A DNA stretch of 64,000 nt from Acidicapsa acidisoli (GTDB lineage: Bacteria > Acidobacteriota > Terriglobia > Terriglobales > Acidobacteriaceae): positions 62,001-126,000 of the forward strand of contig NZ_JAGSYI010000003.1 of assembly GCF_025685625.1 (NCBI RefSeq), read 5' to 3'. The stretch's first letter is position 1. Every line of letters starts with the position of its first letter. A model generated the notes under the pieces. It was not told where the DNA came from and searched no databases. It was given only the letters and a program-made list of their open reading frames with translations. Both the position numbers and the translations under genes were made by a program. Of this stretch, positions 10,155 through 35,408 are shown in pieces.

Positions 10155-11765
10155 ATGAAGCAGACGGACGAAGAGTTCGCTCGCGGCGTAGATTACCTGC
10201 GAAACATCATCGAAAGTGGAAAGACGCTAAAGATGCCGGACCCGCGGCGTCTGATGACGGGTACCACCTATCTCATCGAAGTCACAGGATTCACGAAGAA
10301 CTGGAATATGGGTCTGACCAGGGACCAGATTTGCGACATACCGGGAACGAAAGAGTACCGGGAGTCAGCTCTCGCACTGGCGCAGGTGTTGAACAGCCGC
10401 TTCATGAATGTAGATCCCAACCTTTATGTGACCAAGTCTGGCCGGTTACTTGAGGTGGACTGGGAGTGGCCGCTAAGTCCGATGGTTAACGAGGCCGGAA
10501 ACGCTTATATTTCTGCGAGCGCGCTTTGGGTCCATCTGAAGGATAGGCTGACAGGCGAACTCGCCCGATGCGCGGTCAAAATCACCGCCGCGCAACTAAT
10601 GCCCGGATCTGGCTCCAACCCATTCAGCAGGCTATCGCTCATTGTCAATTCAATCAGATCTGCGGTGGACTCAAAGGCTGTCAGCTTTCATCCCACGCGT
10701 GAATTGTTGGGTAGCAAAGGCGACATTGTTGAATTTGGTTACTCGGCTACGCGGCATGACGATCTGGCTATTCATGATTTCCTGTCCAAAAAGGTTTGGC
10801 TTCTCGGCTTCAAAGCGGGACGCAAGGATACACAAGCATGGGTTTCTGATCCGTGGGACGCAGCTTATTTGGGCTGCACCACGGGTGAATTCCATCAGGC
10901 AGCTGCTGTGCTCGATGCACAGGAGAGGATCGTCCTGCATGAATCCGGAGAATTTGCCAAAGCCGGTAAGGTCCTATTGGCCAACAATGGCCCATTACAA
11001 GCCGCTACGCCAACTCCCCAATCAAAAGCGACTAATGAAGAGTACGATGTCTTCGTCTCGCATGCTACGGAAGATAAGTCTTATGTGGAGCCTTTGGCAC
11101 GCGGCCTTGAGGCCGCAGGAATCAAAGTCTGGTTCGATAAGATTTCGTTGGAGTGGGGCGACGATTTACGCAGCGCAATCGATAGAGGATTGAAGGCCTG
11201 CCGGTATGGCATTGTCGTGTTTTCTAAAGCATTTCTGGCAAAGAAGAAATGGACTGAATATGAGCTGACATCGTTATTTGAGCGGGAAAGCGTTGGTAGA
11301 AAAGTCATTCTGCCCATCTGGCACAACATCACGCGGGACGATCTCGTTGAATACAGTCCGGGGTTCGCCGGTCGATTCGCTATAAATTCGTTGACCGACA
11401 GCAATGCCGATATTGTGAACAATCTGCTGAGACTGCTTGGAAGAGAGCCAAAGATTGCCGATATCCCACAAGTTGCGGCCCTGTCAGAGATGGGGTTTCT
11501 ACCTGGGAAACCCAAGTTCAACGCTGTCGCCTACGCGCGATATGAGACCACCGGAGTTGACGCCAAGCGGGCCGACGTTCACATCCGTCCGTCAGCCACG
11601 AGAGAAGGCTGGTTTACCTATGAGGATTCCTTTGGTGAGGTCCAACATGCGACGCAAGATGACATCGCGACCCGGTTTGTGCTCTTTGACCGCAGACTGA
11701 TTCGAGAGGGCTATATTCGCATGAATTACGCGAATCTCGCTGCGAGCCGCGCATTTGATCTTTGA
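10155..11765 (+). CDS. TIR-domain protein with large unknown N-terminal region (TIR-1)
   Basis: A 536-residue protein. Residues 1-290 match nothing I recognise. Residues about 296-430 are a TIR domain: EYDVFVSHATEDKSYV, then the AAGIKVWFD strand, and KKWTEYEL, in which W366-x3-E370 is the usual place of the NADase catalytic glutamate. About 100 further residues follow. Bacterial TIR domains often cleave or cyclise NAD+ on infection. The start has AAAGGA upstream. It is followed at 52 bp by a second TIR gene, which suggests one transcript. Sensor function for the N-terminal region is inference. Confidence 0.8.
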   Translation: MKQTDEEFARGVDYLRNIIESGKTLKMPDPRRLMTGTTYLIEVTGFTKNWNMGLTRDQICDIPGTKEYRESALALAQVLNSRFMNVDPNLYVTKSGRLLEVDWEWPLSPMVNEAGNAYISASALWVHLKDRLTGELARCAVKITAAQLMPGSGSNPFSRLSLIVNSIRSAVDSKAVSFHPTRELLGSKGDIVEFGYSATRHDDLAIHDFLSKKVWLLGFKAGRKDTQAWVSDPWDAAYLGCTTGEFHQAAAVLDAQERIVLHESGEFAKAGKVLLANNGPLQAATPTPQSKATNEEYDVFVSHATEDKSYVEPLARGLEAAGIKVWFDKISLEWGDDLRSAIDRGLKACRYGIVVFSKAFLAKKKWTEYELTSLFERESVGRKVILPIWHNITRDDLVEYSPGFAGRFAINSLTDSNADIVNNLLRLLGREPKIADIPQVAALSEMGFLPGKPKFNAVAYARYETTGVDAKRADVHIRPSATREGWFTYEDSFGEVQHATQDDIATRFVLFDRRLIREGYIRMNYANLAASRAFDL

Positions 11766-11816
11766 CATTAAGGCCATGCCCTCCGCCCCAGATGGACTGA
11801 ACTTTCGGGAGAGTGA

Positions 11817-12845
11817 ATGAAGAGTATTCGAATATTTGTAGCGTCGCCTGGAGACGTCACGGAAGAGCGAGAAATCCTGTCGAATATCGTGATTCCTGAG
11901 TTACGGCGAATTTTCAGTAACCAGCAGATGTTCGACAGCCAGCAATCTATAGACCTTGAAGTGGTGCGATGGGAGACGCATGCGTGGCCTGCGGTCGGGG
12001 CCGACGCTCAGGATGTAATCAACAAAGAAATCGGCGCATACGACATTTTCGTGGGGGTGATGTGGAAGAGGTTTGGCACCCCAACGAAGCGGGCTGGGTC
12101 TGGAACAGGAGAGGAATTTGATCGTGCCTATGAATATTTCAAGTCATATGGGAAGCCTTACATCATGTTTTATTTCAAGACGAGTCCCTTCTACACCACG
12201 AATGCGAAAGAGCTGGCCCAGTTCCAGCGGGTTTCTCGCTTCAAGCAGAAGCTGGAAAAATTAGGCTTACTGTTCTGGGAGTATGGGTCTTCTATCGACT
12301 TTGAAAGATTCGTAAGAGAACACCTGATCCGACAGATAGCACAAATTATCCCCGCAGCGGCCGCCGTCGCGGATTCGAAACAAGGGAGGGGGAAAGCAGC
12401 CGCGACGGATACGGAATCATCCAGACGAAAAGCTTCTCCCCAAATTTTCATCTCTCACGCCAGAGGTGATGTCGAGAAAGTCAAACTAATTTCCGATTCG
12501 CTGAGAGAGGCAGGATTTCGGCCATGGCTGGATAGTGAGCAGATACTGCCTGGTCAAAGATGGGCGACTGAGATTTATAGCGCAATTGAGAAGTCAGATT
12601 TCTTCCTCATTTTCCTATCAAAGGAGTCACTCAACGTTAACGGTCGCGCCTATGCAGAGAACGAGCTTAGGATTTTGGAGTCAGTTCTACAATCCAAGGA
12701 CAAAGCTGTAGTCATCCCGGTCAGGCTAGATGATGTAGACCCTCCGATGCCCCTGAGGGGCTATAGATGGATTGACTACTTCGCTAAAGATGGTCCCGAG
12801 GAGTTAATACAGGCACTTCGAAACTGGGAGCAACGGGAACAATAA
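11817..12845 (+). CDS. DUF4062-TIR fusion protein (TIR-2)
   Basis: A 342-residue protein; GGGAGAG precedes the ATG. Residues 1-115 are a DUF4062 domain: IRIFVASPGDVTEEREIL, then YDIFVGVMWKRFG and GTGEEFDRAY. In other defence proteins this domain sits in front of NACHT/STAND modules. Residues about 208-340 are a TIR domain (IFISHARGDVEKV, AGFRPWLDSEQI, FLIFLSKES); E281 or E283 are candidates for the catalytic glutamate, since the usual Trp is absent. The third gene in this direction is the convergent integrase, so the TIR pair is probably a two-gene unit. Confidence 0.85.
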   Translation: MKSIRIFVASPGDVTEEREILSNIVIPELRRIFSNQQMFDSQQSIDLEVVRWETHAWPAVGADAQDVINKEIGAYDIFVGVMWKRFGTPTKRAGSGTGEEFDRAYEYFKSYGKPYIMFYFKTSPFYTTNAKELAQFQRVSRFKQKLEKLGLLFWEYGSSIDFERFVREHLIRQIAQIIPAAAAVADSKQGRGKAAATDTESSRRKASPQIFISHARGDVEKVKLISDSLREAGFRPWLDSEQILPGQRWATEIYSAIEKSDFFLIFLSKESLNVNGRAYAENELRILESVLQSKDKAVVIPVRLDDVDPPMPLRGYRWIDYFAKDGPEELIQALRNWEQREQ

Positions 12846-12867
12846 ATGCGAGTGAACGCAACGCGTG

Positions 12868-13854
12868 TCAGATCGCAATCCTCTCCACCTCCGCACGCGA
12901 TACCTCGTCATCCCGGTGGTCGTATATCTGCGTAGTGACTGGCGATGCGTGCCCAGCCAGCCTTTGGGCAACCTCAAGGTATCCGCCGTTCTTGAGATAC
13001 GTGGTAATGCCGCCGGCGCGAAAGCTGTGGTTTCCGATCTTGGTCGTGATGCCGACTGCTCTCCTCCGCCGGGCAATCATGTGGTACGCGTCTCCCTGCA
13101 ACATGGGACGGCGCTCAAGATGAACAGACCAGCGCGGCGACGTGCGAAATAGCGGTCCCTTCGGGTCGTCTGCGAGCCCAGCGCCATGGATGTAGGCGTC
13201 CATATATTGAGCGAGCACGTGGTTCACTGGTACGACGTGCTCCTTCCCGCCTTTCTCCTGTAGCCTCGCAAACGCATCGCGCCCGGCGGTGAAATAGTCC
13301 TCCACGCGCATGCTCAGCGCTGCGCTGATGCGGCTCACGGTATTGAACAGCATGGCGATGAGCGCGCGGTCCCGCAGTCCGATGAGCGTGTCGGTCTCAA
13401 TGCTGCCGAGGATCAGCCGCACTTCTTCTGGGCTCACCGGGATTGTCTTGCCTCTGCGGACGGAGTGTTTCGGCCCGCGGACGACTTGGGCAGGGTTGGT
13501 CTCGATCTGCTGCCCCACCACCATCCAGTCAAATAGCACGCGCAGCGCGGCCAGGTGCAGCTTCACCGTTGGCTTGGAGTGCGTCTGCAGCATTTGCTCG
13601 ATGTAGGTGGCGACATTGATGGGCCGGACGGTCCGGAGATCCGTGATGGTCCACGCCGAGCACCATTCTGAAAACCGCAGGGCTGCGTGTAGATATGCCC
13701 GCCGCGTGTGACGGTTGCGGATGTTGCTGGTGAAGAAATCCCAGAAGCGTTCCTCCGCTCGGGGCGATGGCGAGAAGAGTGCGGGCGTTTTCCACTTCGC
13801 TTCTTGGAATCGTTCCAAAGACCCAGTGGTGGGAATAATTCCGCAATCCGTCAT
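12868..13854 (-). CDS. int: tyrosine recombinase / phage integrase
   Basis: A 328-residue protein with an N-terminal SAM-like core-binding domain (about 30-115) and a complete catalytic domain: R175 (NTVSRIS), K201/K204 (EKGGKE), H276 and R279 (HSFR), H302 (AGHAS) and Y311 (IYD). It is presumably the integrase of the prophage. No attachment site is evident next to it, and phage genes lie on both sides, so the element may be larger than a simple int-bounded unit. Confidence 0.9.
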   Translation of the reverse strand: MTDCGIIPTTGSLERFQEAKWKTPALFSPSPRAEERFWDFFTSNIRNRHTRRAYLHAALRFSEWCSAWTITDLRTVRPINVATYIEQMLQTHSKPTVKLHLAALRVLFDWMVVGQQIETNPAQVVRGPKHSVRRGKTIPVSPEEVRLILGSIETDTLIGLRDRALIAMLFNTVSRISAALSMRVEDYFTAGRDAFARLQEKGGKEHVVPVNHVLAQYMDAYIHGAGLADDPKGPLFRTSPRWSVHLERRPMLQGDAYHMIARRRRAVGITTKIGNHSFRAGGITTYLKNGGYLEVAQRLAGHASPVTTQIYDHRDDEVSRAEVERIAI

Positions 13855-16633: not shown

Positions 16634-16647
16634 GCTATTTGCCAGCA

Positions 16648-17642: not shown

Positions 17643-17995
17643 AACAACCTCCCCTGCTTGTCGTTGGGATCGCTGATGCCATATACACGGCGAGCGAATG
17701 ATACTGTGTCATGACCCTGAAGTATGGGAGGGTTGCTGCGGCTTCCGAGACAACGATCTGCCCAAATCCTCAGGCCACTGGCTTGGTAGGTGACGCCTAC
17801 CGGATCTCCCCCATGACTTCCAAAATCTCCAAGCTCGTAGGCAATCGCCTCTTCTAGTTGTTTATCGGTCAGGCCTTTGGCGATTCGCTCGGTCCACCGC
17901 TTTTCGGCTCCTTCCATGGAGTTAGTAGCCTTTTGGAAAGCCCAAAGCTTTTCGTCGCCGGTCAGCGGCAGTTGTATGTCCGATGGCTCATTCAT
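17639..17995 (-). CDS. conserved phage hypothetical protein
   Basis: A 118-residue protein. The block YELGDFGSHGGDPVGVTYQ and GLRIWADRC is distinctive, and small phage proteins next to methyltransferases show similar blocks. ATGA overlaps on both sides. Function unknown. Confidence 0.65.
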   Translation of the reverse strand: MNEPSDIQLPLTGDEKLWAFQKATNSMEGAEKRWTERIAKGLTDKQLEEAIAYELGDFGSHGGDPVGVTYQASGLRIWADRCLGSRSNPPILQGHDTVSFARRVYGISDPNDKQGRLF

Positions 17996-19374
17996 GTCGC
18001 GCTCATGTGAAACATATCGGGTTGTTTCTGAGCGTCCTGAATACGTCTGTGCGCGATTTCAAAGTATTCCCCCTCGCGCTCAATGCCGAAGAAACGAAAT
18101 CCCTCCAATATCGCAGCTTTCCCCGTACTACCAGATCCCATAAATGGGTCAAGGATTATGCCGTTGCGGGGCGTTACGAGGCGACACAGATAGCGCATCA
18201 AGTCTGTGGGCTTGACGGTGGGATGATGGTTGGCGCGTAGCGTTAAACCGCGATTCCGCGGATTATCGCCGCCAGGATTTCCCTCTTTGCGGGATTCGTC
18301 TTGTTTTTTACCCGCAAGGCCATCCAGCCCTTCGTCACGGTCCTCTTTGCTGGCCTTCGCACAGTAGTAGAAACGAGCCGCACTTCCTGAATCACCACGC
18401 GGAGTTGTGGCTGGGCGGCCATTGAAAGAACTGTATACGTTGTTCGTTTTACTGCTCGGCTCACGGCCTGTGACGGGTGCCTGCTGTCCTGTTGCCTGGG
18501 GGAATGAAGCCAATACCTCGCCGCTGCCATCGTGTATTACGTTTGCGGGCCAGCGGCCGCGCTCGTCTCCGCCTCTCACACCGGGAATCATGGCAAAGTC
18601 GGTGCCACCAGAGCCTGAGTATCGTCTATTTGCGCTCGCTTCGTTCTCGCGGGTGCGAGTGGGGTAGGGCTTTCCATCACGGATATGGGAAAAGAGACCG
18701 CCGGCCCCAGCGGCGAGAACCTCTTCTGTCGAAATTCTTGAAGCATCAATATTCAGAGCACCTGTTCCGTGCCTAAGCATATTGTCGGCAACAGTACCTT
18801 TCAGTGGCTTTCTGGCAACAACGATGGGTTCGTGCGCCGGTTTGAGGGCGGTACCCCAACCTTCGTAATTCCCATCGAGGTTGTGGGATTTGGGGAACCC
18901 AGAGCCGAATAGCCACATTATCTGATCTCTAATCTCAAAGCCCGCATCCTCGATGCCAGTTGTCATGCGATGGTAAGTGCGTGGGGACGCGAATGAGAGG
19001 AGATGCCCACCTGGCCTGAGAATTCGGAAAGCTTCTAAAGCCCATGCTTGCGTCCAGATCTGGAAGGCCGTATTGCCAGAAGGCGAAGTGTCGTAGGTTC
19101 CGGCCGCGAACGCCAGTCCATCGTGGCGCTTATAACTGTCCGCACGAACGGTATTCTTGCGCATTTTGACGGACACAGTGTTCTCGATGTCCGACCCGTC
19201 CCACGCCTTTCCCATGAATCGAATTCCATAGGGAGGGTCCGTGACGATTGAGTCGATCGATTCAGCATCGAGAGTTGCCATAACCTCGATACAATCGCCA
19301 AGCCACAAAGTGCTACCGTGAATTTGAACCTTCGATGACGGCGGCGGATTTGCTTTGTCCTGGAGGCTGGTCAT
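17992..19374 (-). CDS. site-specific DNA methyltransferase (DPPY type), large
   Basis: A 460-residue protein. The catalytic DPPY is at 46-49 and the SAM-binding FMGSG at about 411-415, so this is again a beta-group enzyme, with a long target-recognition insert of over 300 residues. The C-terminal GFRFFGIERE segment is the usual strand after motif I. It modifies adenine N6 or cytosine N4. In the same overlapping gene string as the cytosine-5 methyltransferase; no restriction partner. Confidence 0.9.
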   Translation of the reverse strand: MTSLQDKANPPPSSKVQIHGSTLWLGDCIEVMATLDAESIDSIVTDPPYGIRFMGKAWDGSDIENTVSVKMRKNTVRADSYKRHDGLAFAAGTYDTSPSGNTAFQIWTQAWALEAFRILRPGGHLLSFASPRTYHRMTTGIEDAGFEIRDQIMWLFGSGFPKSHNLDGNYEGWGTALKPAHEPIVVARKPLKGTVADNMLRHGTGALNIDASRISTEEVLAAGAGGLFSHIRDGKPYPTRTRENEASANRRYSGSGGTDFAMIPGVRGGDERGRWPANVIHDGSGEVLASFPQATGQQAPVTGREPSSKTNNVYSSFNGRPATTPRGDSGSAARFYYCAKASKEDRDEGLDGLAGKKQDESRKEGNPGGDNPRNRGLTLRANHHPTVKPTDLMRYLCRLVTPRNGIILDPFMGSGSTGKAAILEGFRFFGIEREGEYFEIAHRRIQDAQKQPDMFHMSAT

Positions 19375-19589
19375 GATCGGCCCCTCTCGGAGTAAGGAAT
19401 GCCATCGTTGATTCGCTTCATCATTCCTCGGCGGAACTGATCCATGATTTCAGCGCCGGTAGTCGGCCACCATGTTGTTAAACCAGTAGTGAATGTGCGC
19501 TCAGGATTCTCCTTGGCGGCTCGGATGGCCTTGATATAAGCCGATAATGGAACCCGCTTGTCGATAGCGGGAAGGTGAATGGTTCTCAT
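19371..19589 (-). CDS. small phage protein between two methyltransferases
   Basis: A 72-residue protein (MRTIHLPAIDKRVPLSAYIKAI opening; a WWPTTGAEIMDQF centre). ATGA overlap with both neighbouring methyltransferase genes shows that it is translated with them. Similar short proteins accompany phage methyltransferases; role unknown. Confidence 0.65.
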   Translation of the reverse strand: MRTIHLPAIDKRVPLSAYIKAIRAAKENPERTFTTGLTTWWPTTGAEIMDQFRRGMMKRINDGIPYSERGRS

Positions 19590-21349
19590 GCTGCCTTCTC
19601 CGATTGCAAGAGGGTCCGATGTACATGATCAAGCCGGTCAAATATCCATTTCACACACGGGACTGCCATACTGTTCCCGATGGCTTTGTATCTGGGCCCA
19701 TCTGCAGCCAGTTGACGTGCATCCATTTCAGTCAGGCCCGTTACCCGTAGACGAAGGTATTCGAACCATTCTCGGAAATCCTTCGCCTTATTCTTTCCGT
19801 GCGGAACGAGGGTATAGTTGTCCGGCATGCCCTGGAGCCGTTCGCACTCGATAGGAGTAAGCCTGCGAACGGCAGAGGGCACCAGAACATGCGGTTTGTC
19901 GCCGCCACCTTGGGAAGCGCGGATAGCAGGCATGACATCGCCAGATAATTCTGCTGTAGCTCCGCCATCACGACCGCGTAATGACATTGCAATGGCATGT
20001 GAATGATGAGCCTGCAATGTGAAGGCTGGGTCACCTTCTTTTCCTAGACCGACACCTTCACGCGAACTATTGCTTGTTCCTTCGTCACGCAAGGCCATCT
20101 GGGTATTAATTGGAAAACAGGAAACGGCTATACCGTGCTGCTTGCCCGATTGGAGAGTGAACATCGGATCTTCGGGGTCGCCAACTCCCATACCCGCACG
20201 GGGATCAGTCGTGGAGACGCCAGTGCGTGAACCGGGCTCAAGAATGGGATAGCAGACCGCAACCTGCCCTCCGCCGTTCGCATGGCTGGCATCATGATTC
20301 ATGCTGCGTAAGGTGGGCGAGAGATCATTCGTGACGTCACGGCCATCATCTTTACAGGAGAAGGCCACTGGCACTAACGGCGTACCGCGCCCCGTGCCGT
20401 CTTCGCTCGCATCGAACCCTTCACCGCGAAGGCTGTGTGCAATTAAGTAGGTACTGGCCGTGTCAACATCAGTGCCTGGCGGTCGATGACCACCAGTAGT
20501 ATTGCCTCCCGCCCGCATCGTTTCTGCCAGATTGGCACAGACAAGCCTTCCTGGATTGATCCCAGCGCCACCGCTGCGGCCAGCAGCAGCTTCTAAAGTT
20601 CCTGCGATGAGATGCCCTGCTTGGGCTTGGTTATCATCCGCGCTGCATGTTCCAACGCCTGCTGCAGTAAGGGCGGCAACGTTCGCCTGCGCTTTGCGGC
20701 TCGGCGGAGAATCCCCGCGCATGCTATCGGGCTCAAGTAATACCGCTGCGGCAGGACGCCAGTCTCCACGATATCCGATAACGAACAAACGGCGGCGTCT
20801 TTGGGCCACTCCGAAATATTGGCCGTCAAGTATCCGCCAGGCGATGCCCCATCTGTCTGTACGGCCTTCGGCGATTCCAGCGTTCTTCCATCCGGCGGCG
20901 GGAGGTCGGTATTCAATCCCGGTAATGGCACTGATGAATGCTGCGAAGTCTTCGCCTTTGGCGCTTGAGAGAAGACCTGGGACGTTCTCAAATGCCAGCC
21001 AGAGGGCATGAAGGCGTGTAGCCAAGGCCCCATATTCAAGCGCGAGGTTGCCGCGCGGATCATCCAGTCCGAGGCGTTTTCCGGCGACTGAGAAGGATTG
21101 GCAGGGTGTTCCCCCGACAAGAAGGTCAACTGTTCCATATGTATCTTTCTGAATTGTGGTGAAGTCGGAATGTAGGGGGATCGATGCGTAGTGGTGCTGT
21201 AATACAGCGCGGGGGAATTTATCTATTTCGCTAAAGAAGGCGATTTTCCATCCAAGATGTTTTGCAGCGAGTGTAGGAGCAGAGATCCCGGAACAAACAC
21301 AGCCGTAGGTTATGGGCGGCGGCCTTGATTGATCGTTGAAATTCAGCAT
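19586..21349 (-). CDS. DNA (cytosine-5-)-methyltransferase
   Basis: A 587-residue protein from the ATG at 21349, where AAAGGA is well placed; an ATG two codons earlier (21355) is too close to it. It has motif I (GCVCSGISAPTLA), motif IV PCQS near 82-85, motif VI ENV near 121-123, motif VIII QRRRRLFVIGY, and a C-terminal YKAIGNSMAVPC, which is motif X. The target-recognition region is unusually long, about 270 residues, suggesting broad or several target sites as in phage multi-specific enzymes (inference). Confidence 0.92.
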   Translation of the reverse strand: MLNFNDQSRPPPITYGCVCSGISAPTLAAKHLGWKIAFFSEIDKFPRAVLQHHYASIPLHSDFTTIQKDTYGTVDLLVGGTPCQSFSVAGKRLGLDDPRGNLALEYGALATRLHALWLAFENVPGLLSSAKGEDFAAFISAITGIEYRPPAAGWKNAGIAEGRTDRWGIAWRILDGQYFGVAQRRRRLFVIGYRGDWRPAAAVLLEPDSMRGDSPPSRKAQANVAALTAAGVGTCSADDNQAQAGHLIAGTLEAAAGRSGGAGINPGRLVCANLAETMRAGGNTTGGHRPPGTDVDTASTYLIAHSLRGEGFDASEDGTGRGTPLVPVAFSCKDDGRDVTNDLSPTLRSMNHDASHANGGGQVAVCYPILEPGSRTGVSTTDPRAGMGVGDPEDPMFTLQSGKQHGIAVSCFPINTQMALRDEGTSNSSREGVGLGKEGDPAFTLQAHHSHAIAMSLRGRDGGATAELSGDVMPAIRASQGGGDKPHVLVPSAVRRLTPIECERLQGMPDNYTLVPHGKNKAKDFREWFEYLRLRVTGLTEMDARQLAADGPRYKAIGNSMAVPCVKWIFDRLDHVHRTLLQSEKAA

Positions 21350-21404
21350 CGTCATGTCCTTTCAGATTGGTGTTGACGCTGCCGTAAGAGCGTAGGCACG
21401 CGCG

Positions 21405-22524: not shown

Positions 22525-23103
22525 TCACAGCTTCCATACGACGGGCTTTAATGTTTCTTTGAGGTACAACGGATGCCAAGGCGTTCCCTCCATGGACAGC
22601 CGTAATGTGTGCGGTGTGACGCCAGCCCGCTCTATTAGCAGCTTTGCCAGTGCTGGTCCTCGCGTGCGCAAGGGCGCATGCTTAGGCTTGCCGTAAGCAA
22701 ACACCACAACGGCCGCAGATTGTGCCATCTCAATCAGGTGTTTGTCGTTGTCCGGGCCTATCGGATCGGATATCTCCAGCAGTCGCTTCTGGTCAGTCGC
22801 TCGATAAGCGAACGTATTGCCCACGTAGATCCCGCCATATCCCCATGCCCGAGCAAAACGCCCGCATTTTGCGACCGTGGGGTCATCGATCAGAGGATCG
22901 GCTGTGCTGGGGTTCATCATGACGAACATGACGTGCGGCTTGCTGTCATCCCACGTCCTCTTGAGACGGTAACGATAGCAGTCCTTAGGGCCACCAAAGA
23001 CCGCAGTGCTTTTTACGCCCTGCGCCACTGCTAGACGGACCTTACCGCCGGGATCATGTTTAGGTTTCATGGTGGGTTCTGGAAATAATTCTACTTGCTG
23101 CAT
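22525..23103 (-). CDS. DUF1643 protein
   Basis: A 192-residue protein. The block YRYRLKRTW, VMFVMMNPSTAD, DDPTVAKCGRFARAWGYGG and VGNTFAYRATD is the DUF1643 signature, common in phages and mobile elements and of unknown function. The start overlaps the end of the preceding gene by 13 bp. Confidence 0.85.
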   Translation of the reverse strand: MQQVELFPEPTMKPKHDPGGKVRLAVAQGVKSTAVFGGPKDCYRYRLKRTWDDSKPHVMFVMMNPSTADPLIDDPTVAKCGRFARAWGYGGIYVGNTFAYRATDQKRLLEISDPIGPDNDKHLIEMAQSAAVVVFAYGKPKHAPLRTRGPALAKLLIERAGVTPHTLRLSMEGTPWHPLYLKETLKPVVWKL

Positions 23104-23817: not shown

Positions 23818-24684
23818 ATGCGCATTTTCCTCGTCACAATCACGGCCGGAGAAAAAGCTCACGAACTTGCCCGCAAGCTCATTCTCGAATGCGGAGCCGA
23901 GGATTATGCATCTGCGGAAGAATTCTGGCCGGATGGCGTCCAGGACCCTTATCGTGCCGTGTTGGAAGCGGACGCGATCATATGGCTCTACAAACCACAC
24001 ACTAGGGGTTACAGATTTTCAAGGACTGACTTTAATCCTCTCTACGGTGATGGGATATTCCTAACTGCCCTGAACAATGAGAAAGTAGTTCTCTATTACG
24101 AGTTTGCTTCGAAAGTCCAGCAGACATCACCCGCGATAATGAGAAAGGTCGCTCGCAGAAAGTATGGGGTTCCATCGCTCAAAAGCTTCGCCGATCTCCT
24201 GAGGAAAGATCTAAGTGACCTTATGGCAGGGAAGATTAAGTATACCGAGGCACCTCTCAAGGTGTTTCTATGCCATTCAAAACAAGACAAAGACTCCGTT
24301 CGAAAAACAAGGCTCCAACTCCTTGAACGGGGCATACAACCGTGGTTTGACGAGGAAGACCTGATTGGCGGCGTTGATTGGGAACTTGAAATCAGGCGCG
24401 CAGTCAAGTCGAGCCACGCAATTTTGGTGTTCCTTTCCAATAAATGGCTTAGAACCGCTGGCTTTGCTCATAAAGAGATTAAACTGGCGCTAGATGTCGC
24501 CGATCATCAGCCTGAAGGCAGCATTTTCATCATTCCGTTGCGGCTCGACGAATGCGAAGTACCGGACCGACTTCGGACATGGCAGTGGATCGATATTTTC
24601 ACGGATGATGGCTTTGAAAAACTGGTGAAGGCTCTGCGACGGCGCGCGGATGAGCTTGGCATCGTTGCTCGCGGGTTCGATTAG
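23818..24684 (+). CDS. TIR-domain protein with N-terminal Rossmann-like domain (TIR-3)
   Basis: A 288-residue protein from the ATG at 23818; the open frame starts earlier but only from here is the sequence protein-like. Residues 1-125 start MRIFLVTITAGEKA and look like an alpha/beta flavodoxin or DUF4062-like fold (inference). Residues about 147-275 are TIR: LKVFLCHSKQDKDSV, RGIQPWFDEEDL, AILVFLSNKW and FAHKEIKLA, with E220 as candidate catalytic residue. No strong ribosome-binding site is visible. Plus-strand cargo between minus-strand phage genes, 188 bp before a lysine-rich gene. Confidence 0.8.
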   Translation: MRIFLVTITAGEKAHELARKLILECGAEDYASAEEFWPDGVQDPYRAVLEADAIIWLYKPHTRGYRFSRTDFNPLYGDGIFLTALNNEKVVLYYEFASKVQQTSPAIMRKVARRKYGVPSLKSFADLLRKDLSDLMAGKIKYTEAPLKVFLCHSKQDKDSVRKTRLQLLERGIQPWFDEEDLIGGVDWELEIRRAVKSSHAILVFLSNKWLRTAGFAHKEIKLALDVADHQPEGSIFIIPLRLDECEVPDRLRTWQWIDIFTDDGFEKLVKALRRRADELGIVARGFD

Positions 24685-28790: not shown

Positions 28791-30044
28791 TTAAGCGGCA
28801 GATGCTGCGTTTTCCGCCGTTTTAGCTGTGATTGGTTTGCCGAATAGACCTCGCTTCTCAGTAGTAGCTGCAGCGCTCTCTGCTGGAGCCGCCGGCGTCT
28901 TCTCAGGCTCCTTCGGAGGATTGTTCTGAGCTGCAGCCGCCTTATCTGCGGGCTTGAAGTCCGGAATGCTGTCGTCGATACCCTGATTCGAGTACCGCGA
29001 CGGCTTGCCCTCCAGTTCGCGATGCATGGTGTCGTAACCCTGCCGCACGGCTTCGGCGGACAAGACCTCCTCCAACTCCTTCCACGTGGCGTTGAAGTGG
29101 TCCTTGATGAGTTTGATCTTGCGCTGTTTGTCGATGGCCGCTTGTCCGGGTACGTGCATGACAAGCAGGTTCTGGATCTCTTCGAGCACGATTTCTTTTT
29201 GGAGCTTCTCCTTCTGCCAATCGGGCTTGCCCGTCTGCTGGTCGAAAAGTTTGGCGCTGTTGCGCGATGCGTCGACGCCGACATGCTGACCGCCAATGTT
29301 GAGGAGCTCAATATGCGGCAGGAAGACCTTGAAGCCGGGGTTGATGAATTCGCGGCCATCGAGGATGGTGGAGCGGTCCTTCACCACATAACCCTTGCGT
29401 ATGGTGAGTTTTTTCTTCCGTTCCAATGACTTCTCGGCGATCATCTCGACCAGAAGTGACGGCTCGTAGCCCATCTCGCTTTCAGCTTTCATCTTGGTGC
29501 CGGTAGAGATCAGCTCTTTCTTGCCGCCGTCCTCTTTCTCCTGGTACTCATATGTGTTGCCGGCGCGGCCGCACAGGATGATGTGGGCCTTGCTGTTGAG
29601 ATAAGACTCCGTGAACTGTGCCCACATCGGCTTAATGGCACCGTAATCCTGAAACTCCAAGCGATTGTCTTTGCGCTTGCGCTGGCGGGCAAAGGTGAGG
29701 CAAAGCTCAATCCAGAAGTGGGTGATGCTGTCGACGATTAGAATTGCTTGTTCCTTCTCGGCATCCGCAACCGCCTGCTTCAAATCGGAGAATGAGCGCG
29801 TGCAGATCGAAATGAATTCGACGCCGGCCTGGTCGAACCAAGGCTTTGCCCATGTCGATCCCGTCTCGGTGTCGAGAAAGAAAACAGGAGGCAGCGCGCC
29901 GCCCTTTTCTTTCACGTATTCGGCGAGTCCGATTGCAACCTTGGAGCCGGTGTAGGTCTTGCCCGTACCGGCGTTGCCATAAATACCCATCTTCAGGTAG
30001 GCCTGGTTGGGTTTCAGGGGTGAGTTTCTATCAAAAAGTGACAT
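28791..30044 (-). CDS. phage RecA-like ATPase (AAA, Sak4-like)
   Basis: A 417-residue protein. The Walker A GNAGTGKT is at residues 23-30; a Walker B-like AILIVDSITHFW follows near residue 105, then a FARQRKR and HIILCGRAG segment typical of phage single-strand-annealing or recombination ATPases of the Sak4/AAA_24 group. The last 80 residues are Pro/Ala-rich and probably disordered. It lies 12 bp after the SF1 helicase gene, so the two likely act together in replication or recombination. Confidence 0.8.
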   Translation of the reverse strand: MSLFDRNSPLKPNQAYLKMGIYGNAGTGKTYTGSKVAIGLAEYVKEKGGALPPVFFLDTETGSTWAKPWFDQAGVEFISICTRSFSDLKQAVADAEKEQAILIVDSITHFWIELCLTFARQRKRKDNRLEFQDYGAIKPMWAQFTESYLNSKAHIILCGRAGNTYEYQEKEDGGKKELISTGTKMKAESEMGYEPSLLVEMIAEKSLERKKKLTIRKGYVVKDRSTILDGREFINPGFKVFLPHIELLNIGGQHVGVDASRNSAKLFDQQTGKPDWQKEKLQKEIVLEEIQNLLVMHVPGQAAIDKQRKIKLIKDHFNATWKELEEVLSAEAVRQGYDTMHRELEGKPSRYSNQGIDDSIPDFKPADKAAAAQNNPPKEPEKTPAAPAESAAATTEKRGLFGKPITAKTAENAASAA

Positions 30045-30055
30045 AGTGGACGCTC

Positions 30056-31198
30056 CTATTGACGCGTTAAAAGGGTGAGCCCGTTTTCGGCACGGGTTAA
30101 GGCCGTGTACAACCAGTGATTGCGGTGCTCCCGGAAGGAGCCGCTATCGTCGATAATGGTGACGTGATCCCAACTCGACCCCTGCGCTTTATGGCAGGTG
30201 ATGGCATATCCCCAGTCGAACTCGTCAAATCGCATTCCCGGAACTTCAAGGCGCTTGGCTTCGCCAAACATGAAGTGGTTATCGAAATGAAAAGGATCGA
30301 TGGTGATGCTGGTCTTGGGATCATGTACGTCATCCAACTTGACATCCACTTCCCACGCGCCGTGCGCGCCTTTGTAATCTGATTTCAGGTCGTTAAGAGT
30401 ACCCATCGCGCCATTGAAGAGGCCTTCGCGACGGTTGTTCTTGCAGCAGATAAGGCGCTCGCCAACATTAGGTCGGCGCCCTTCATGCCCACGTAACGTG
30501 CGGATGCGCTGCGTATAGGTCCAACGGACGCGATTAAGGCCGCATATCAGCTGCGTATCCTCGCGATACACCAACGACTGTGTCTCCTTGGTCAGCGGCA
30601 GGACCTTGACGCGACCAATTTCGTAATGACTCGGCAAACGTTCGCCTTGGCGGGCAAGTGTTGCAAGATGGAGTATCGGGCTATCCAGATTCTGCCGATG
30701 AATCTCGCGGAGAAAGACATCGGGTTGACGGTTGGTAAAAGCACCCTGTCCCCTTACTGGCGGCAGCTGACCGGGGTCACCCATGATGAGGATCTTCTTT
30801 CCGAAAGAGCGCAGATCCTTGGCCATATCCTCCCCGACCATGCTGCACTCGTCGAGCACGATCAATTCGGCCTTTGCGGCGTCACTCTCTTCGGAAAGGG
30901 AGAACGAAAGCGCGCCTGTCTTTTCATCCACCGTGGGCGAATAGATCAGGCTATGTATCGTCTGCGCCTTCTCGACGCCTTTGCGGCGGAGAACAGATGC
31001 TGCTTTTCCGGTATACGCGGCCGTGCGGACTTTCGTGATGCCATATTTGTCCTTGAGCTCATCGATAGCTATGTTTGCAATCGTGGATTTGCCCACGCCT
31101 GCGTAGCCAGCAAGGTAGAACTCCTGGTGCTTCGTGCCGTACCACTTGACGATGGCCTTTATCGCTGCGCACTGTTCGGCTGACGGAGATATTTTCAT
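30056..31198 (-). CDS. SF1 (RecD/Dda-like) DNA helicase
   Basis: A 380-residue protein. Motif I GYAGVGKST is at 31-39, motif Ia-like AAYTGKAA follows, then motif II LDECSM near 114, motif III GDPGQLPPV, and a C-terminal UvrD-like ending with AITCHKAQGSSWDHV and LYTALTRA. This is the compact Dda/RecD2 layout of phage 5'-3' helicases. ATGA overlap with the preceding gene. Confidence 0.9.
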   Translation of the reverse strand: MKISPSAEQCAAIKAIVKWYGTKHQEFYLAGYAGVGKSTIANIAIDELKDKYGITKVRTAAYTGKAASVLRRKGVEKAQTIHSLIYSPTVDEKTGALSFSLSEESDAAKAELIVLDECSMVGEDMAKDLRSFGKKILIMGDPGQLPPVRGQGAFTNRQPDVFLREIHRQNLDSPILHLATLARQGERLPSHYEIGRVKVLPLTKETQSLVYREDTQLICGLNRVRWTYTQRIRTLRGHEGRRPNVGERLICCKNNRREGLFNGAMGTLNDLKSDYKGAHGAWEVDVKLDDVHDPKTSITIDPFHFDNHFMFGEAKRLEVPGMRFDEFDWGYAITCHKAQGSSWDHVTIIDDSGSFREHRNHWLYTALTRAENGLTLLTRQ

Positions 31199-31969: not shown

Positions 31970-32325
31970 GCTGGCTCTCCCTGATAAGCACGTTTGCGAG
32001 CGTAATCGACAAGGTGACGTCGCTCCGCCGGGTCAGCGATGCGTGCGACATAGCGGGCGGCGAGGTAGGCGTCGTGCTGTGCTTCAGAAGGTTCGGTCGC
32101 GGAAGTACCAGCACGCTCATATATCTCGCTCACGGTGACACCGAAGAGTTGGGCAAGTTGCGCAATTTGAAAGGCGGAAAAGGCGTTGGTGCCACACTCA
32201 CTTTTCTGGATCTGCTGGTAGCTGACGGAAATGGCCTCGGCCAGGAACAGCTGTGTATAGCCATGCTGCTTGCGGAGGGATTTTATCTCTGCACTGATGG
32301 CCTTATTGAATTCTGCTGGCGTCAT
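31966..32325 (-). CDS. XRE-family regulator in the early operon
   Basis: A 119-residue protein. Residues 8-68 are an XRE helix-turn-helix (IKSLRKQHGYTQLFLAEAI, then YQQIQKSECG, then LAQLFGVTVSEIYE). The C-terminal 45 residues form a helical tail. Co-translated with neighbours. It may modulate early transcription. Confidence 0.85.
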   Translation of the reverse strand: MTPAEFNKAISAEIKSLRKQHGYTQLFLAEAISVSYQQIQKSECGTNAFSAFQIAQLAQLFGVTVSEIYERAGTSATEPSEAQHDAYLAARYVARIADPAERRHLVDYARKRAYQGEPA

Positions 32326-32522
32326 GAGCGCTCACTCCTTGGGTCATATGCTTGTTTAAGCTCAAACTTCACGTAGAAGGCGAAGCCAGCGATATACGGC
32401 ACCGCAGCCCACCACGGAGATATGCCGAGTCGGTTGCAGGCCTCGACAGCGCCGTAGAATGCAGCCAGCAAGGCTGCCATAGCGGCGTTTACCACGACCA
32501 TGTATTTGATGAAGGGGATCAT
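32322..32522 (-). CDS. small membrane protein
   Basis: A 66-residue protein from the ATG that overlaps the upstream stop. It has a hydrophobic N-terminal helix (YMVVVNAAMAALLAAFYGA) and a second one (WWAAVPYIAGFAFYV) before a short charged end. No family recognised. Confidence 0.55.
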   Translation of the reverse strand: MIPFIKYMVVVNAAMAALLAAFYGAVEACNRLGISPWWAAVPYIAGFAFYVKFELKQAYDPRSERS

Positions 32523-32674
32523 TGGGCACCTCCATGAGCCAACAGATTCATTGCAAGAGCTTCTCCGCCGATGAAGCAAAGCGCGAACAACGCTGCGGCA
32601 ACGGCACAGAAACCGAGCACGAAGATGCACCATGCGGGGCTGAAGCGGACGAGGCTTACGGTTAGGGTGTTCAT
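32519..32674 (-). CDS. small membrane protein
   Basis: A 51-residue protein with one long hydrophobic segment (WCIFVLGFCAVAAALFALCF). The start is supported by GGAGGGG seven bases upstream and a TGATG junction with the gene before. Confidence 0.55.
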   Translation of the reverse strand: MNTLTVSLVRFSPAWCIFVLGFCAVAAALFALCFIGGEALAMNLLAHGGAQ

Positions 32675-32805
32675 CAGATTCCCCTCCATGCGACATAGGT
32701 GCCGATGATGATGACCGGAAGAATGAAGGCGCAGGCGGCGCCGATGACGGACATCCACAGACTCTCAGGTTCGCGGCCCAAGGCCTGATTCATAAGTTTC
32801 TTCAT
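32674..32805 (-). CDS. 43-residue membrane microprotein
   Basis: ATG at 32805 preceded by GGAGGG at seven bases and overlapping the previous stop; the TGA overlaps the next ATG. The peptide is charged at the start (MKKLMNQALGREPESLW) and then has one transmembrane helix (MSVIGAACAFILPVIIIGTY). Confidence 0.65.
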   Translation of the reverse strand: MKKLMNQALGREPESLWMSVIGAACAFILPVIIIGTYVAWRGI

Positions 32806-33317
32806 TGCGCTACCCTCCAGTTGACGCGGTTGATGTAGTAAAGCGGTTCGTAATCAGCCATAGCGGACGCGGGCCGGACGTTCGGGTAGCGGTTGTCGAG
32901 GATGAACGCGCGGCCGCCGTGGCTCACAAGAAGGATGGCGTGGAAGCGACCATCTTTGCGGATACGGACCCCGACGAACTGCATGTCGGCATCGGCAACA
33001 CCGAGGGTGTAGAGGGCTGAGTATTTGGCCACCACGTAGTCGCGGCATTCCCCACCAAGTTGCGAGAATTGCACGGGAGTTTGCCAGATGGCCTCGTGGT
33101 AGTTCGCTTCGTCGTTGGCATACGGAATTCTGTTGATTTCGCGGTTGATTTCATCCAGCTTGGCCTCGAAGTGAGCGATGGGAAGGCTGTGTGTGCGGAT
33201 GGGGTAGGCATTCAAGAGTTGCGTCGCGTAAGTCCAGCCTGTGAGCTGCACGTCCATATCAAATGCGGGGCACGATAGCGGCATGATGACGATGAGGATG
33301 GGAAGGAGCCTACGCAT
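32802..33317 (-). CDS. exported transglutaminase-like cysteine proteinase
   Basis: A 171-residue protein from the ATG with GGGAGAG upstream. It begins with a signal peptide (MRRLLPILIVIMPLSCPAF). The mature part has GGECRDYV (Cys), FHAILLV (His) and FILDNRYP (Asp), the triad of bacterial transglutaminase-like cysteine proteinases (BTLCP, former DUF920). An exported enzyme of this kind in a phage early operon is uncommon; it could modify the cell surface or exclude other phages (inference). Confidence 0.75.
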   Translation of the reverse strand: MRRLLPILIVIMPLSCPAFDMDVQLTGWTYATQLLNAYPIRTHSLPIAHFEAKLDEINREINRIPYANDEANYHEAIWQTPVQFSQLGGECRDYVVAKYSALYTLGVADADMQFVGVRIRKDGRFHAILLVSHGGRAFILDNRYPNVRPASAMADYEPLYYINRVNWRVAQ

Positions 33318-33519
33318 GATGGCTCTCCCGTATGGCGTCAACTTCGTCACAGAACGCACGGTAATCGACGCGGCTTTGCTCAGCCTTCACACGCGCCTCT
33401 ATGGCCCTTACTATGTCACCCTCCATGGAACAGCTGGCCATGATGTTCTGCTTGATGGCTGCGACATCAGGGCCGATGCTGCCGATGGATTGCTGTAAGA
33501 GGGCGATCAGGTCTTGCAT
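33310..33519 (-). CDS. small helical phage protein
   Basis: A 69-residue protein, mostly one long helix (MQDLIALLQQSIGSIGPD, then IVRAIEARVKAEQSRV). It ends with TAG just behind the next start. No recognised family. Confidence 0.55.
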   Translation of the reverse strand: MQDLIALLQQSIGSIGPDVAAIKQNIMASCSMEGDIVRAIEARVKAEQSRVDYRAFCDEVDAIRESHHA

Positions 33520-33747
33520 CTACCGACCCTCCCGCTTGGAAACCGCAGCGTACAGGACCTCTTTCGTGTATTCGCTGCTGACTGGACGCCATGAGCCAGC
33601 GGTGTCGTTGAAGTATTCAGCGGTCACTTTCGCGTAGATGGTCTGGCGGTTCTCATCGACGTTGAAGCGGTATTTGCGTCCCTTGACATTGTGGTCTGAG
33701 ACGATCTCATGCTGCCAGGAAGCGGGTTTGATTTTTGATTTGGCCAT
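33520..33747 (-). CDS. small beta-rich phage protein
   Basis: A 75-residue basic protein with a repeated strand pattern (KYRFNVDENRQTIYAKV). Ends with TAG directly against the next start codon. Function unknown. Confidence 0.55.
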   Translation of the reverse strand: MAKSKIKPASWQHEIVSDHNVKGRKYRFNVDENRQTIYAKVTAEYFNDTAGSWRPVSSEYTKEVLYAAVSKREGR

Positions 33748-33749
33748 GA

Positions 33750-34064
33750 CTATGCGCCCTCCCGCTCAAGGCGTTCCGCTTTCATCTCGTCGATCTGGCG
33801 GTCCACGGCAGCGTCGAAATCTCTCTGCTCGTGCCAAGCCTTGCTGAATTCGCTTGACAGGTCGATCTGGCCGACATCGGTTAGCGTGAATTCATAGGTG
33901 CCAACCGTTTCCTCGGCATCCTCGACCGCTGCCTGACGAGACATGATGACCTCGCCTTCAGACCAGAACTTGTTGCCGGTGGAGAAGACATTGATGAATT
34001 TCGTGGGGGTGGGCTTGGAGGGGGGCTGCATGTGGTGCTCATCTGTAGGTTGATGAGGCACCAT
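33750..34064 (-). CDS. first gene of the leftward early operon
   Basis: About 104 residues if started at the ATG at 34064; ATG at 34031 and TTG at 34091 are alternatives and none has an ideal ribosome-binding site. The middle holds TKFINVFSTGNKFWSEGE; the C-terminus is acidic and helical. Directly upstream are an inverted repeat and an operator-like motif, as expected for the first gene under repressor control. Confidence 0.55.
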   Translation of the reverse strand: MVPHQPTDEHHMQPPSKPTPTKFINVFSTGNKFWSEGEVIMSRQAAVEDAEETVGTYEFTLTDVGQIDLSSEFSKAWHEQRDFDAAVDRQIDEMKAERLEREGA

Positions 34065-34065
34065 A

Positions 34066-34083
34066 GGGAGGAAAAACCCTCCC
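34066..34083. repeat. 6-bp inverted repeat at the early-operon start
   Basis: GGGAGG and CCTCCC separated by six bases, immediately before the ATG at 34064. A hairpin here would occlude the only Shine-Dalgarno-like sequence, so it could set translation of the first early gene. Confidence 0.4.
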
Positions 34084-34096
34084 GTCAACAAAAAAG

Positions 34097-34113
34097 TGGA
34101 GGATTTTTACTCT
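34097..34113. promoter_or_regulatory. candidate repressor operator, early-operon copy
   Basis: TGGAGGATTTTTACTCT matches the sequence at 36136-36152 at 15 of 17 positions. It lies between the leftward early operon and the divergent TIR-5 gene. Confidence 0.5.
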
Positions 34114-34211
34114 TTTGCTCCGCCCTCGGTACCAGGCTCGTTATTCTCGTCAGGTAAAATGGTTGCCTACTGCACTCATGACTGTGTTCGTGACGAGGAG
34201 GAGCACTTAAC

Positions 34212-35408
34212 ATGCCGGTTGCAGTCAAGAAGCAGCGGGGAATCTTTATAAGTCATAGTCACGCCGATAAACGCTTTGCCCGCCGGATTGGCGCAGATTT
34301 GAAGGAGGCTGGGTTCCGCGTTTGGATAGATGAAGCAGAAATTATGCTCGGCGACTCCCTCTTGGAAAAAATCAGTGAAGGAATCGATCGGATGGACTAC
34401 GTCGCAGCTATCATCTCGCCTGATAGCGTCAAGTCACGATGGGTGAAATATGAATTGCGGAAAGCGATGACTCAGGAGATTGAGAACAGGAAAGTCAAAG
34501 TCCTGCCGCTCGTGATTGGAAACTGCAAGCTGCCCTCCTTTCTCGCAGATAAGGCTTACGCGGATTTCCGAGACCCCAAGGCCTATAAAAACGGCCTACA
34601 ACAGGTAATTCGTCGTCTTTCGGTGAGACCGAGTCGGAAAAAAGTAGAAGACACATTCGCGGCCATGCCGGTACCAAGTGCGCCGGTACAAGTTCCGTCG
34701 ATATCAGTTACACCAGTATCAGCCGCGCCACAAGTGGTGGAGAAACGTCCAACCATCGATCTTCGAACTTTCGAATATAAGAAGGAGGCAACGGACATTG
34801 GCGTAGGGCCGGACGAGCTGATGAGCCTTCCCAAAAATGCTTTGTTCCTTCTGTTAATCCGATGTTGGCAGCGGTTAGATGAACTGTTGATGCCAAGTTG
34901 GTTTGACGGAAACTATATGCATGACACTATGAACCCCATGAGGATCGAGATTCGTCCAGGCTTCGATGAAATACTGAACGCTCCGAAGACCTACCGGCGC
35001 AAAGCCATTCTTGATCGGGCAATACAGATAATGAGCAATGGGTTATCAGTCGTTACCCGTCTGCCCCATCGCGTGCGCTGTCCTTCAATCCTCATAGACT
35101 GCCTCGGAACAATGATCGCGGTCATCGAGTACGGTAGAGGTGAGGAGGATGCAGCATATAAGGCCTTTTATGGAACTTTTCGCCTTTATGCCGTGCTAAA
35201 CGAATATGACAATTCGATCGTGCGATCAGAACTGCTGAAAGACTTCCAAGACCTAAGAAAGGAAGCACTCGAACACAAATGGGCAGATGATACCCCCATT
35301 GATCGAAATAAGCTCTGGCATGGGTTATGGCGGGCAGGGCTGCCGAAACTATTCCGTAGCGATCTATTCCAAAAGGTGAGCTTTCTCACAAGCTTTCATA
35401 AATTCTGA
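34212..35408 (+). CDS. TIR-domain protein in the phage immunity region (TIR-5)
   Basis: A 398-residue protein; GAGGAGG lies about ten bases before the ATG. Residues 8-130 are TIR: GIFISHSHADKRFARRIG, FRVWIDEAEIMLGDSL, VAAIISPDSV and W77-x3-E81. A Pro/Val/Ser linker (about 150-180) leads to a helical C-terminal domain of 200 residues that I do not recognise. It stands between the candidate operator of the early operon and the convergent repressor gene, the classic place for a superinfection-exclusion gene. Its product could act against competing phages. Confidence 0.8.
   Translation: MPVAVKKQRGIFISHSHADKRFARRIGADLKEAGFRVWIDEAEIMLGDSLLEKISEGIDRMDYVAAIISPDSVKSRWVKYELRKAMTQEIENRKVKVLPLVIGNCKLPSFLADKAYADFRDPKAYKNGLQQVIRRLSVRPSRKKVEDTFAAMPVPSAPVQVPSISVTPVSAAPQVVEKRPTIDLRTFEYKKEATDIGVGPDELMSLPKNALFLLLIRCWQRLDELLMPSWFDGNYMHDTMNPMRIEIRPGFDEILNAPKTYRRKAILDRAIQIMSNGLSVVTRLPHRVRCPSILIDCLGTMIAVIEYGRGEEDAAYKAFYGTFRLYAVLNEYDNSIVRSELLKDFQDLRKEALEHKWADDTPIDRNKLWHGLWRAGLPKLFRSDLFQKVSFLTSFHKF

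What the first reader, a model, noticed from the sequence alone, without database searches (positions are those of the whole stretch)
10155..35408. Five different TIR-domain proteins on one prophage
TIR domains occur at 10155, 11817, 23818, 25248 and 34212, each fused to a different partner: an unknown N-terminus, DUF4062, a Rossmann-like N-terminus, an unknown beta/helical C-terminus, and a helical C-terminus. All keep a candidate catalytic glutamate, four of them at the canonical position after the IxF(I/L)S strand. One or two TIR genes per element would be ordinary; five in 25 kb of one element suggests a dedicated anti-phage locus, or several systems competing for NAD+ as a common resource.
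Basis: partly seen in the sequence, partly recalled or inferred. Interest (0 to 1): 0.85.

Follow-up and report, generated by a model that had tools for sequence, protein, structure and literature searches.

The report
Five TIR genes on mobile DNA
A 25-kb stretch of mobile DNA in a bacterium carries five different TIR immune-type proteins; the tail of one recurs in proteins that sit beside the effector of a known anti-phage alarm system (Thoeris), and next to it here lies a DNA-cutting type of enzyme, which hints at a new version of that alarm.

Summary
In detail: five TIR proteins at 10-35 kb pass Pfam's cut-off and keep the Glu (TIR3's place is settled only by relatives). They are 20-41% identical and lie in at least four transcription units. 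The "prophage" is a phage arm cut off after its portal; TIR1 and TIR2 lie on the other side of the integrase, next to ArdC. I read this as defence cargo gathered piecemeal, not one system. Similar TIR clusters exist elsewhere.

(2) The C-terminus of TIR4 is a rare module, found in 8 loci, on TIR in 5 and on DUF4062 in 3; all 3 of the latter abut a TM-macro ThsA (type II Thoeris effector), none of the 5 TIR forms does. Here TIR4 follows an HNH gene by 43 nt: possibly a Thoeris-like pair with a nuclease effector, but unproven and seen nowhere else (0 of 11 HNH loci). (3) The TIR1 N-half resembles an orphan host protein present in 14 of 14 congeners: a sensor or decoy. Structure predictions failed; no activity was tested.

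The parts
10155..11765 (+). TIR1, 536 aa: N-half (1-285) related to an orphan protein of the host family; TIR about 290-425; C-terminal tail
   Evidence: TIR_2 72.8 bits; PDC-S66 200.9 bits over the TIR part; N-half relatives in 14 of 14 congeners and one in the own genome
11817..12845 (+). TIR2, 342 aa: DUF4062 (about 1-170) + TIR (about 205-335); 51 nt after TIR1, same strand
   Evidence: DUF4062 41.3 bits and TIR_2 98.0 bits; SGTxEE conserved; DUF4062 40-41% identical to module-bearing DUF4062 proteins of Nostoc/Calothrix plasmids
12868..13854 (-). tyrosine integrase
   Evidence: Phage_integrase 5.5e-24; PHROG integrase 1.5e-34
23818..24684 (+). TIR3, 288 aa from ATG 23818: small N-terminal domain without match + TIR (closest to TIR2, 36%)
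   Evidence: TIR_2 87.6 bits
25248..26429 (-). TIR4, 393 aa from ATG 26429: TIR + C-terminal module (about residues 165-393 of this form)
   Evidence: TIR_2 59.3 bits; module alignment A1; relative L027, 74% in its best segment
26473..27333 (-). HNH domain (about 1-118) + C-terminal part without match; upstream partner candidate of TIR4 (43 nt gap)
   Evidence: PADLOC PDC-M68A 74.5 bits, SAVED_HNH N-terminus 49.8 bits; PDB 9om4 HNH endonuclease E 2e-7, 7rwk SAVED protein E 5e-4; junction read
34212..35408 (+). TIR5, 398 aa: N-terminal TIR close to solved TIR NADases (AbTIR among them) + C-terminus without match
   Evidence: TIR_2 108.8 bits; PDB 7uxr 2e-15, AbTIR 8g83 7e-13
28791..31198 (-). 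phage-type early genes: Sak4-like annealing protein and RecD-like helicase, same strand as and upstream of the HNH-TIR4 pair
35430..36191 (-). S24-type repressor, weak match just under the cut-off
   Evidence: Peptidase_S24 22.6 bits vs 23.3
39978..45859 (+). phage packaging block: ParB-like protein, small protein, terminase large subunit, three small proteins, portal; the genes that follow the portal in related phage contigs are absent
   Evidence: comparison with IMG/VR relatives L124 and L125
8893..10107 (-). ArdC-type antirestriction protein (plasmid/ICE type), just before TIR1
   Evidence: ArdcN 2.4e-36, MPTase-PolyVal 6.2e-43

Best explanation
The stretch is a mobile and defence island: a phage arm truncated after the portal, next to plasmid-type genes, that has gathered TIR genes one at a time as accessory cargo. 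Each protein is an NAD+-consuming domain tied to its own sensing or oligomerising part. On infection the sensor would cluster the TIR domains, which would then cleave NAD+ and either starve the cell or make an ADP-ribose signal. Most likely TIR1, TIR3 and TIR5 act alone by NAD+ depletion, TIR2 is a two-domain DUF4062-TIR enzyme possibly co-expressed with TIR1, and TIR4 is a signal maker of Thoeris type. Shown by sequence: domains, candidate Glu, module sharing, gene order, truncation. Inferred: every activity, trigger and partnership, and the piecemeal history.
For: Five TIR domains over the Pfam cut-off, candidate Glu in all, mutual identity of 20-41%, at least four transcription units judged from strand and intervening genes. 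Neighbours are integrase, methyltransferases, Sak4, helicase, terminase, portal and ArdC. The proteins after the portal in L124/L125 have no tblastn match in the window, the 10 kb to its left or the 20 kb to its right. DUF4062 is reported as an NADase that senses the phage portal (PMC13174449; abstract, part 1 of 6 of the text and found passages read). SpbK is a TIR NADase clustered by a phage portal (PMC12847820, passages). The TIR4 module also occurs on DUF4062 beside TM-macro ThsA in 3 of 3 such loci.
Against: No activity or protection was measured. No effector of known Thoeris kind (SIR2-SLOG, macro, caspase) was found among the window genes that I scanned with Pfam, and none of the 5 TIR-module loci shows a macro-domain neighbour in the DNA held, so the Thoeris role of TIR4 rests on the DUF4062 forms alone. 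Structure models of TIR4 and the HNH protein are unusable (mean pLDDT 32 and 33). The PADLOC matches are to TIR, HNH and methyltransferase parts and to candidate (PDC) proteins, without a partner gene of the same system. Some of the genes may be decayed or silent.
Confidence: 0.65

Rival explanations
1. TIR4 and the HNH gene before it are a Thoeris-like pair: the TIR makes an ADP-ribose signal, and the C-terminal part of the HNH protein binds it and switches on DNA cutting.
For: Same strand, 43-nt gap. The TIR4 module is shared with DUF4062 proteins that abut TM-macro ThsA in 3 of 3 loci, against 0 of 12 DUF4062 loci without the module that I scanned with a macro-domain profile (one of the 12, L117, is cut at a contig end). 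Another TIR-module gene (Deinococcus plasmid) converges, 2 nt apart, with a candidate defence protein, PDC-M50A. The HNH domain resembles that of SAVED effectors of CBASS (the name Cap5 is recalled).
Against: The pairing was seen only in the window: 0 of 11 loci with a related HNH domain have a TIR profile match, and 0 of 6 loci with a TIR4-like TIR have an HNH match (a seventh, L054, gave no profile match and was dropped). L027, the closest TIR4 relative, is cut by its contig end on the informative side. The HNH protein's C-terminal part has no relative in plasmids and its structure prediction failed. The last position of its HNH motif is a glycine, so activity is open.
Confidence: 0.22
2. 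TIR4 and HNH are two unrelated cargo genes that landed at the end of the phage early operon.
For: They follow Sak4 and helicase genes on one strand. Proteins with this HNH domain occur with many other lengths and neighbours.
Against: Tight spacing, and the pairing of the module with an effector gene in Nostoc and Calothrix.
Confidence: 0.53
3. The five TIR genes form one integrated system (for example several sensors feeding one effector).
For: Their density: 5 of the genome's 14 TIR_2 matches lie within 25 kb. Thoeris systems with two ThsB genes exist (E. coli CFT073; PMC11204291, passages).
Against: At least four transcription units with unrelated genes between; no shared effector found; no relative with the set: TIR1, TIR3 and TIR5 found no full-length relative in the 41, 199 and 199 genomes searched.
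Confidence: 0.08
4. The TIR1 N-half is a decoy of a host protein that phages attack: damage or binding of the decoy sets off the TIR.
For: It resembles a protein of about 307 aa found in 14 of 14 congeners, 5 of 10 other genomes of the family and 0 of 16 more distant ones, with no Pfam or NCBIfam match.
Against: The identity to that protein is only 19-22% in the multiple alignment. A closer relative (28%) in G084 is a separate ORF overlapping a GGDEF-like ORF by 7 nt (GGDEF recognised by eye), which fits a plain ligand sensor as well. The host protein's role is unknown.
Confidence: 0.2

Closest known systems
Thoeris, type II (TM-macro ThsA + ThsB)
   Same: TIR4's C-terminal module is shared with proteins next to TM-macro ThsA in three cyanobacterial plasmids; TIR with candidate Glu
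   Different: No ThsA of known kind found in the window; the neighbour is an HNH protein; in those plasmids the enzyme domain is DUF4062, not TIR; the other TIR-module loci have no macro neighbour either
Swarozyc (DUF4062 NADase, PMC13174449)
   Same: TIR2 has a DUF4062 domain with the conserved Glu pair
   Different: Its second half is a TIR domain in place of a C-terminal auxiliary domain
Single-gene TIR NADases (AbTIR, SpbK, PADLOC candidate PDC-S66)
   Same: TIR5 matches AbTIR and TIR1 matches PDC-S66 in the TIR part
   Different: Their non-TIR parts have no match in Pfam or NCBIfam, nor in plasmids (TIR1 N-half, TIR5 C-half)
CBASS HNH-SAVED effector (Cap5; name recalled)
   Same: HNH domain of the protein before TIR4
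   Different: No SAVED domain found by Pfam and no CD-NTase among the scanned neighbours; C-terminal part unmatched

Membership tests
Thoeris | ThsB: TIR domain with catalytic Glu | tested here: met
   TIR4: TIR_2 59.3 bits, WTSHEL motif; sequence only
Thoeris | adjacent ThsA effector of known kind (SIR2-SLOG, TM-macro, caspase-like) | tested here: not met
   Pfam on the window genes scanned shows none. A whole-genome search for ThsA_Macro found nothing, but no control rang, so it shows nothing
Thoeris | TIR product activates the effector | not testable with these tools
   needs biochemistry
Swarozyc (DUF4062) | DUF4062 domain with conserved Glu | tested here: met
   41.3 bits; SGTxEE in 6 of 6 aligned rows
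Swarozyc (DUF4062) | C-terminal auxiliary portal-binding domain | tested here: not met
   TIR2 continues into a TIR domain and ends at residue 342; no direct comparison with the KpSwz domain was made
CBASS with HNH-SAVED effector | HNH domain | tested here: met
CBASS with HNH-SAVED effector | SAVED domain and CD-NTase gene | tested here: not met
   no Pfam family in the HNH protein; none among the scanned neighbours
complete prophage | integrase, packaging, capsid and tail genes | tested here: not met
   integrase, terminase and portal found; no head or tail family beyond these in the 20 proteins scanned with PHROGs; proteins after the portal in L124/L125 have no match in the window and its flanks

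The most novel reading that the evidence does not exclude
TIR4's C-terminal module marks a family of alarm-signal makers in which TIR and DUF4062 are interchangeable enzyme domains and the partner effector is swapped: a membrane pore (TM-macro ThsA) in cyanobacteria, an HNH DNA nuclease in the window. That would be a new Thoeris-like type that kills by cutting DNA, and DUF4062 would be a signal-making ThsB as well as a plain NADase.
Probability: 0.2. Interest if true: 0.75.

Novelty: new variant of a known kind. Interest (0 to 1): 0.5.

Why it matters
The module gives a sequence handle on what Thoeris-like proteins sense, and it links DUF4062 to type II Thoeris. The held library has one paper with both words 'Thoeris' and 'DUF4062', and its main text does not contain ThsA; other literature was not searched. 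If the HNH pairing is real, ADP-ribose signals would reach nucleases as cyclic oligonucleotides do in CBASS. The TIR1 N-half gives a testable case of an immune-type protein built on a relative of a host protein.

Tried and rejected
Rejected: one operon or one system (gene order); recent tandem duplication (20-41% identity); tRNA-borne island (no tRNA in the window). Borders: the direct-repeat search (22 nt or more) returned only families inside the 2405-aa gene at 53-60 kb, so no att pair was found.

Led nowhere: viral-contig scans for the TIR4 C-terminus, the module profile, P0006, TIR5, TIR3 and TIR1 gave no confirmed relative. Plasmid searches for the TIR1 N-half, TIR5 C-half, TIR3 N-domain and HNH C-part found nothing. 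In phages, TIR2 found nothing and TIR4 one TIR-only match. The module profile in 396 genomes of the phylum found only the own copy. AlphaFold models were unusable, so no fold search was run. PDB profile searches for the module and for the TIR1 N-half family: none. A paper search for TIR domain, antiphage and 'integrated decoy' listed four papers, by title plant-immunity reviews (listing only). Whether the TIR3 N-domain is a divergent DUF4062 was only judged by eye; BLASTP aligns just the TIR parts of TIR2 and TIR3. Whole-genome searches of the own genome for one post-portal phage protein and for ThsA_Macro found nothing, without a ringing control.

Full report
Observation. The five ORFs are real and each has a TIR_2 domain over Pfam's cut-off. 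The own genome (7.11 Mb, 18 contigs; the window is contig C3, 62001-126000) has 14 TIR_2 matches, 13 over the cut-off, five of them here. In a draw of 297 genomes of the phylum, 95 have a match at E <= 0.001; six genomes, the own one included, show 14, the number at which scoring stopped in that search. Random placement gives five of 14 within 25 kb in 4 of 2,000,000 trials. But TIR clusters exist elsewhere: four in about 12 kb in G059, where a fifth weak profile match lies in the same stretch, and four in about 7 kb in G293; a Calothrix plasmid has four TIR genes in 5.4 kb, one of them with the TIR4 module (L024). So the density is unusual but of a known kind.

Catalytic residues. In TIR1, TIR2, TIR4 and TIR5 the Glu follows an aromatic residue by four (WTEYEL, YAENEL, WTSHEL, WVKYEL). 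TIR3 has FAHKEI. Ungapped against TIR2 its Glu falls two residues early, but relatives L123, L090 and L091 keep a Glu at that aligned place. I take it as five of five, TIR3 with less certainty. TIR2 has in addition a DUF4062 domain with SGTxEE, conserved in 6 of 6 aligned rows. A 2026 preprint (PMC13174449; I read the abstract, part 1 of 6 of the text and found passages) reports that DUF4062 is a TIR-like NADase (Swarozyc) whose Glu is needed and which is triggered by the phage portal. On that report the region holds six domains of the TIR superfamily.

Setting. Genes named from Pfam and PHROGs: ArdC-type antirestriction 8893-10107(-), TIR1 and TIR2 (+), integrase 12868-13854(-), two DNA methyltransferases 17992-19374(-) and 19586-21355(-), DUF1643 22525-23103(-), TIR3 (+), HNH and TIR4 (-), Sak4-like 28791(-), RecD-like helicase 30056(-), TIR5 (+), S24-like repressor 35430(-, just under cut-off), ParB-like 39978, terminase 40928, portal 44264 (+). 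Two IMG/VR contigs hold terminases 81 and 79% identical and share genes with the window from about 37.1 kb to 45.9 kb. Beyond the portal they continue with proteins that have no tblastn match in the window, in the 10 kb left or the 20 kb right of it; one of them was also not found in the whole genome, though without a control. The window's phage arm is thus cut short. The held parts of these two contigs (15.2 of 23.2 kb and 12.6 of 15.7 kb) contain no TIR profile match. The window genes at 37637 and 39153 have no counterpart in them and look like further insertions. To the right lie host-like genes, and to the left beyond the window a relaxase-like ORF (both judged by eye). By strand and intervening genes the TIR genes lie in at least four transcription units; TIR1 and TIR2 are 51 nt apart and may form an operon. 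No att pair was found, so I cannot say where any element begins or ends.

TIR4 and its module. The C-terminal 230 residues match no Pfam, PADLOC, NCBIfam or PDB profile. tblastn in 72,556 plasmid records found four relatives; a second search with the Calothrix protein brought two more; a genome scan brought L027, 74% identical in its best segment. With the window that makes eight loci. Five are TIR-module: window, L027, Calothrix NIES-4101, Spirosoma, Deinococcus. Three are DUF4062-module: Nostoc edaphicum, Nostoc TCL26-01, Calothrix NIES-4105 (DUF4062 over Pfam's cut-off in the last, just under it in the two Nostoc proteins; clear with a profile from related rows). The alignment of six of the eight has 20 invariant columns. 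All three DUF4062-module genes abut a gene with the ThsA_Macro domain (E 7e-55, 1e-56, 8e-58), one on the same strand and two convergent; the one scanned with PADLOC is also a nearly full-length ThsA match (7e-67). A profile from those three macro proteins found nothing in 12 DUF4062 loci without the module (L108-L112, L114-L118, L121, L122), nor in the five TIR-module loci. So in this small sample ThsA goes with the DUF4062-module combination. Three of the four best plasmid matches of the DUF4062 part of TIR2, 40-41%, are these same three proteins. Among the TIR-module loci, the Deinococcus gene is convergent with a PADLOC candidate defence protein, PDC-M50A (5e-31), the NIES-4101 gene with a row of further TIR genes, the Spirosoma gene follows a small protein without match, and the window gene follows HNH. 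L027 is cut at its contig end.

HNH protein. Its first 118 residues match PDC-M68A and the HNH part of SAVED effectors and, weakly, PDB entries 9om4, 7rwk and 8ysq. At the last motif position (CQNCGKLID) it has a glycine, where 9om4 and 7rwk have H and 8ysq also has G; whether this HNH cuts is open. Its C-terminal half matched nothing in plasmids. Of 11 loci with related HNH domains none shows a TIR profile match, and of six with TIR4-like TIRs none shows an HNH (L054 gave no profile match and was left out). The pair is therefore a single case.

TIR1. Its N-half finds one relative on contig C1 of the own genome (1501153-1501746; 27% identity) and relatives in 14 of 14 congeners, 5 of 10 other genomes of the family and 0 of 16 more distant ones. 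The protein of the own genome (307 aa) has no Pfam or NCBIfam family. The closest relative of the N-half (28%, G084) overlaps a GGDEF-like ORF by 7 nt. Congener G399 holds a 155-aa ORF matching the TIR and tail parts, apparently a remnant of a TIR1-like gene. Sensor and decoy are both open.

TIR3 and TIR5. In 199 genomes each, the listed matches lie in the TIR part or little beyond it (TIR5: none past residue 196 of 398). TIR5's TIR is close to AbTIR and other solved TIR proteins.

Mechanism. SpbK (PMC12847820, passages) and Swarozyc show how portal binding clusters TIR-type domains. Type II Thoeris uses TIR products to cluster TM-macro ThsA (PMC11204291, passages). By analogy I expect the non-TIR parts here to be triggers. 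None of this was tested. A paper search for Thoeris, ThsB and 'nuclease effector' found one paper, a CBASS review seen only in the listing. A search for Thoeris, HNH, TIR domain and ThsA listed ten, of which I checked one for HNH and found it only in the reference list; PMC11204291 has no HNH. I cannot say that no HNH Thoeris is in print.

Verdict. Observation confirmed; a single system not supported. The most promising part is the TIR4 module and its neighbours.

Noticed in passing
8127-8735: 202-aa protein with two H-x-T/M-like motifs (HITI, HMAL) that resemble 2H phosphoesterases by eye; no Pfam match. It follows a multi-TM-looking protein (6810-8075) on the same strand.
   Followed up: no
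53000-60217: 2405-aa protein with seven ~657-nt direct repeats and Fn3/chitobiase-type domains.
   Followed up: no
47271-48092 and 51441-52340: Two HipA_2-like kinases; the first also matches PADLOC PDC-M66A.
   Followed up: partly
37637-38911 and 39153-39968: Two genes without counterpart in the related phage contigs L124/L125, where the surrounding genes are shared; probably inserted cargo, no family found for either.
   Followed up: partly
62925-63587: DUF433 gene; a 32% identical relative lies left of the window in L078.
   Followed up: no
L112 2504-5563 and L114 6189-8693: TIR and DUF4062 genes side by side on one strand in a Caulobacter plasmid and in G025, like TIR1 and the DUF4062-TIR gene here.
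   Followed up: partly
L024 3242-8612: Calothrix plasmid with four TIR genes in a row, two of them with two TIR domains each, one carrying the TIR4 module.
   Followed up: partly
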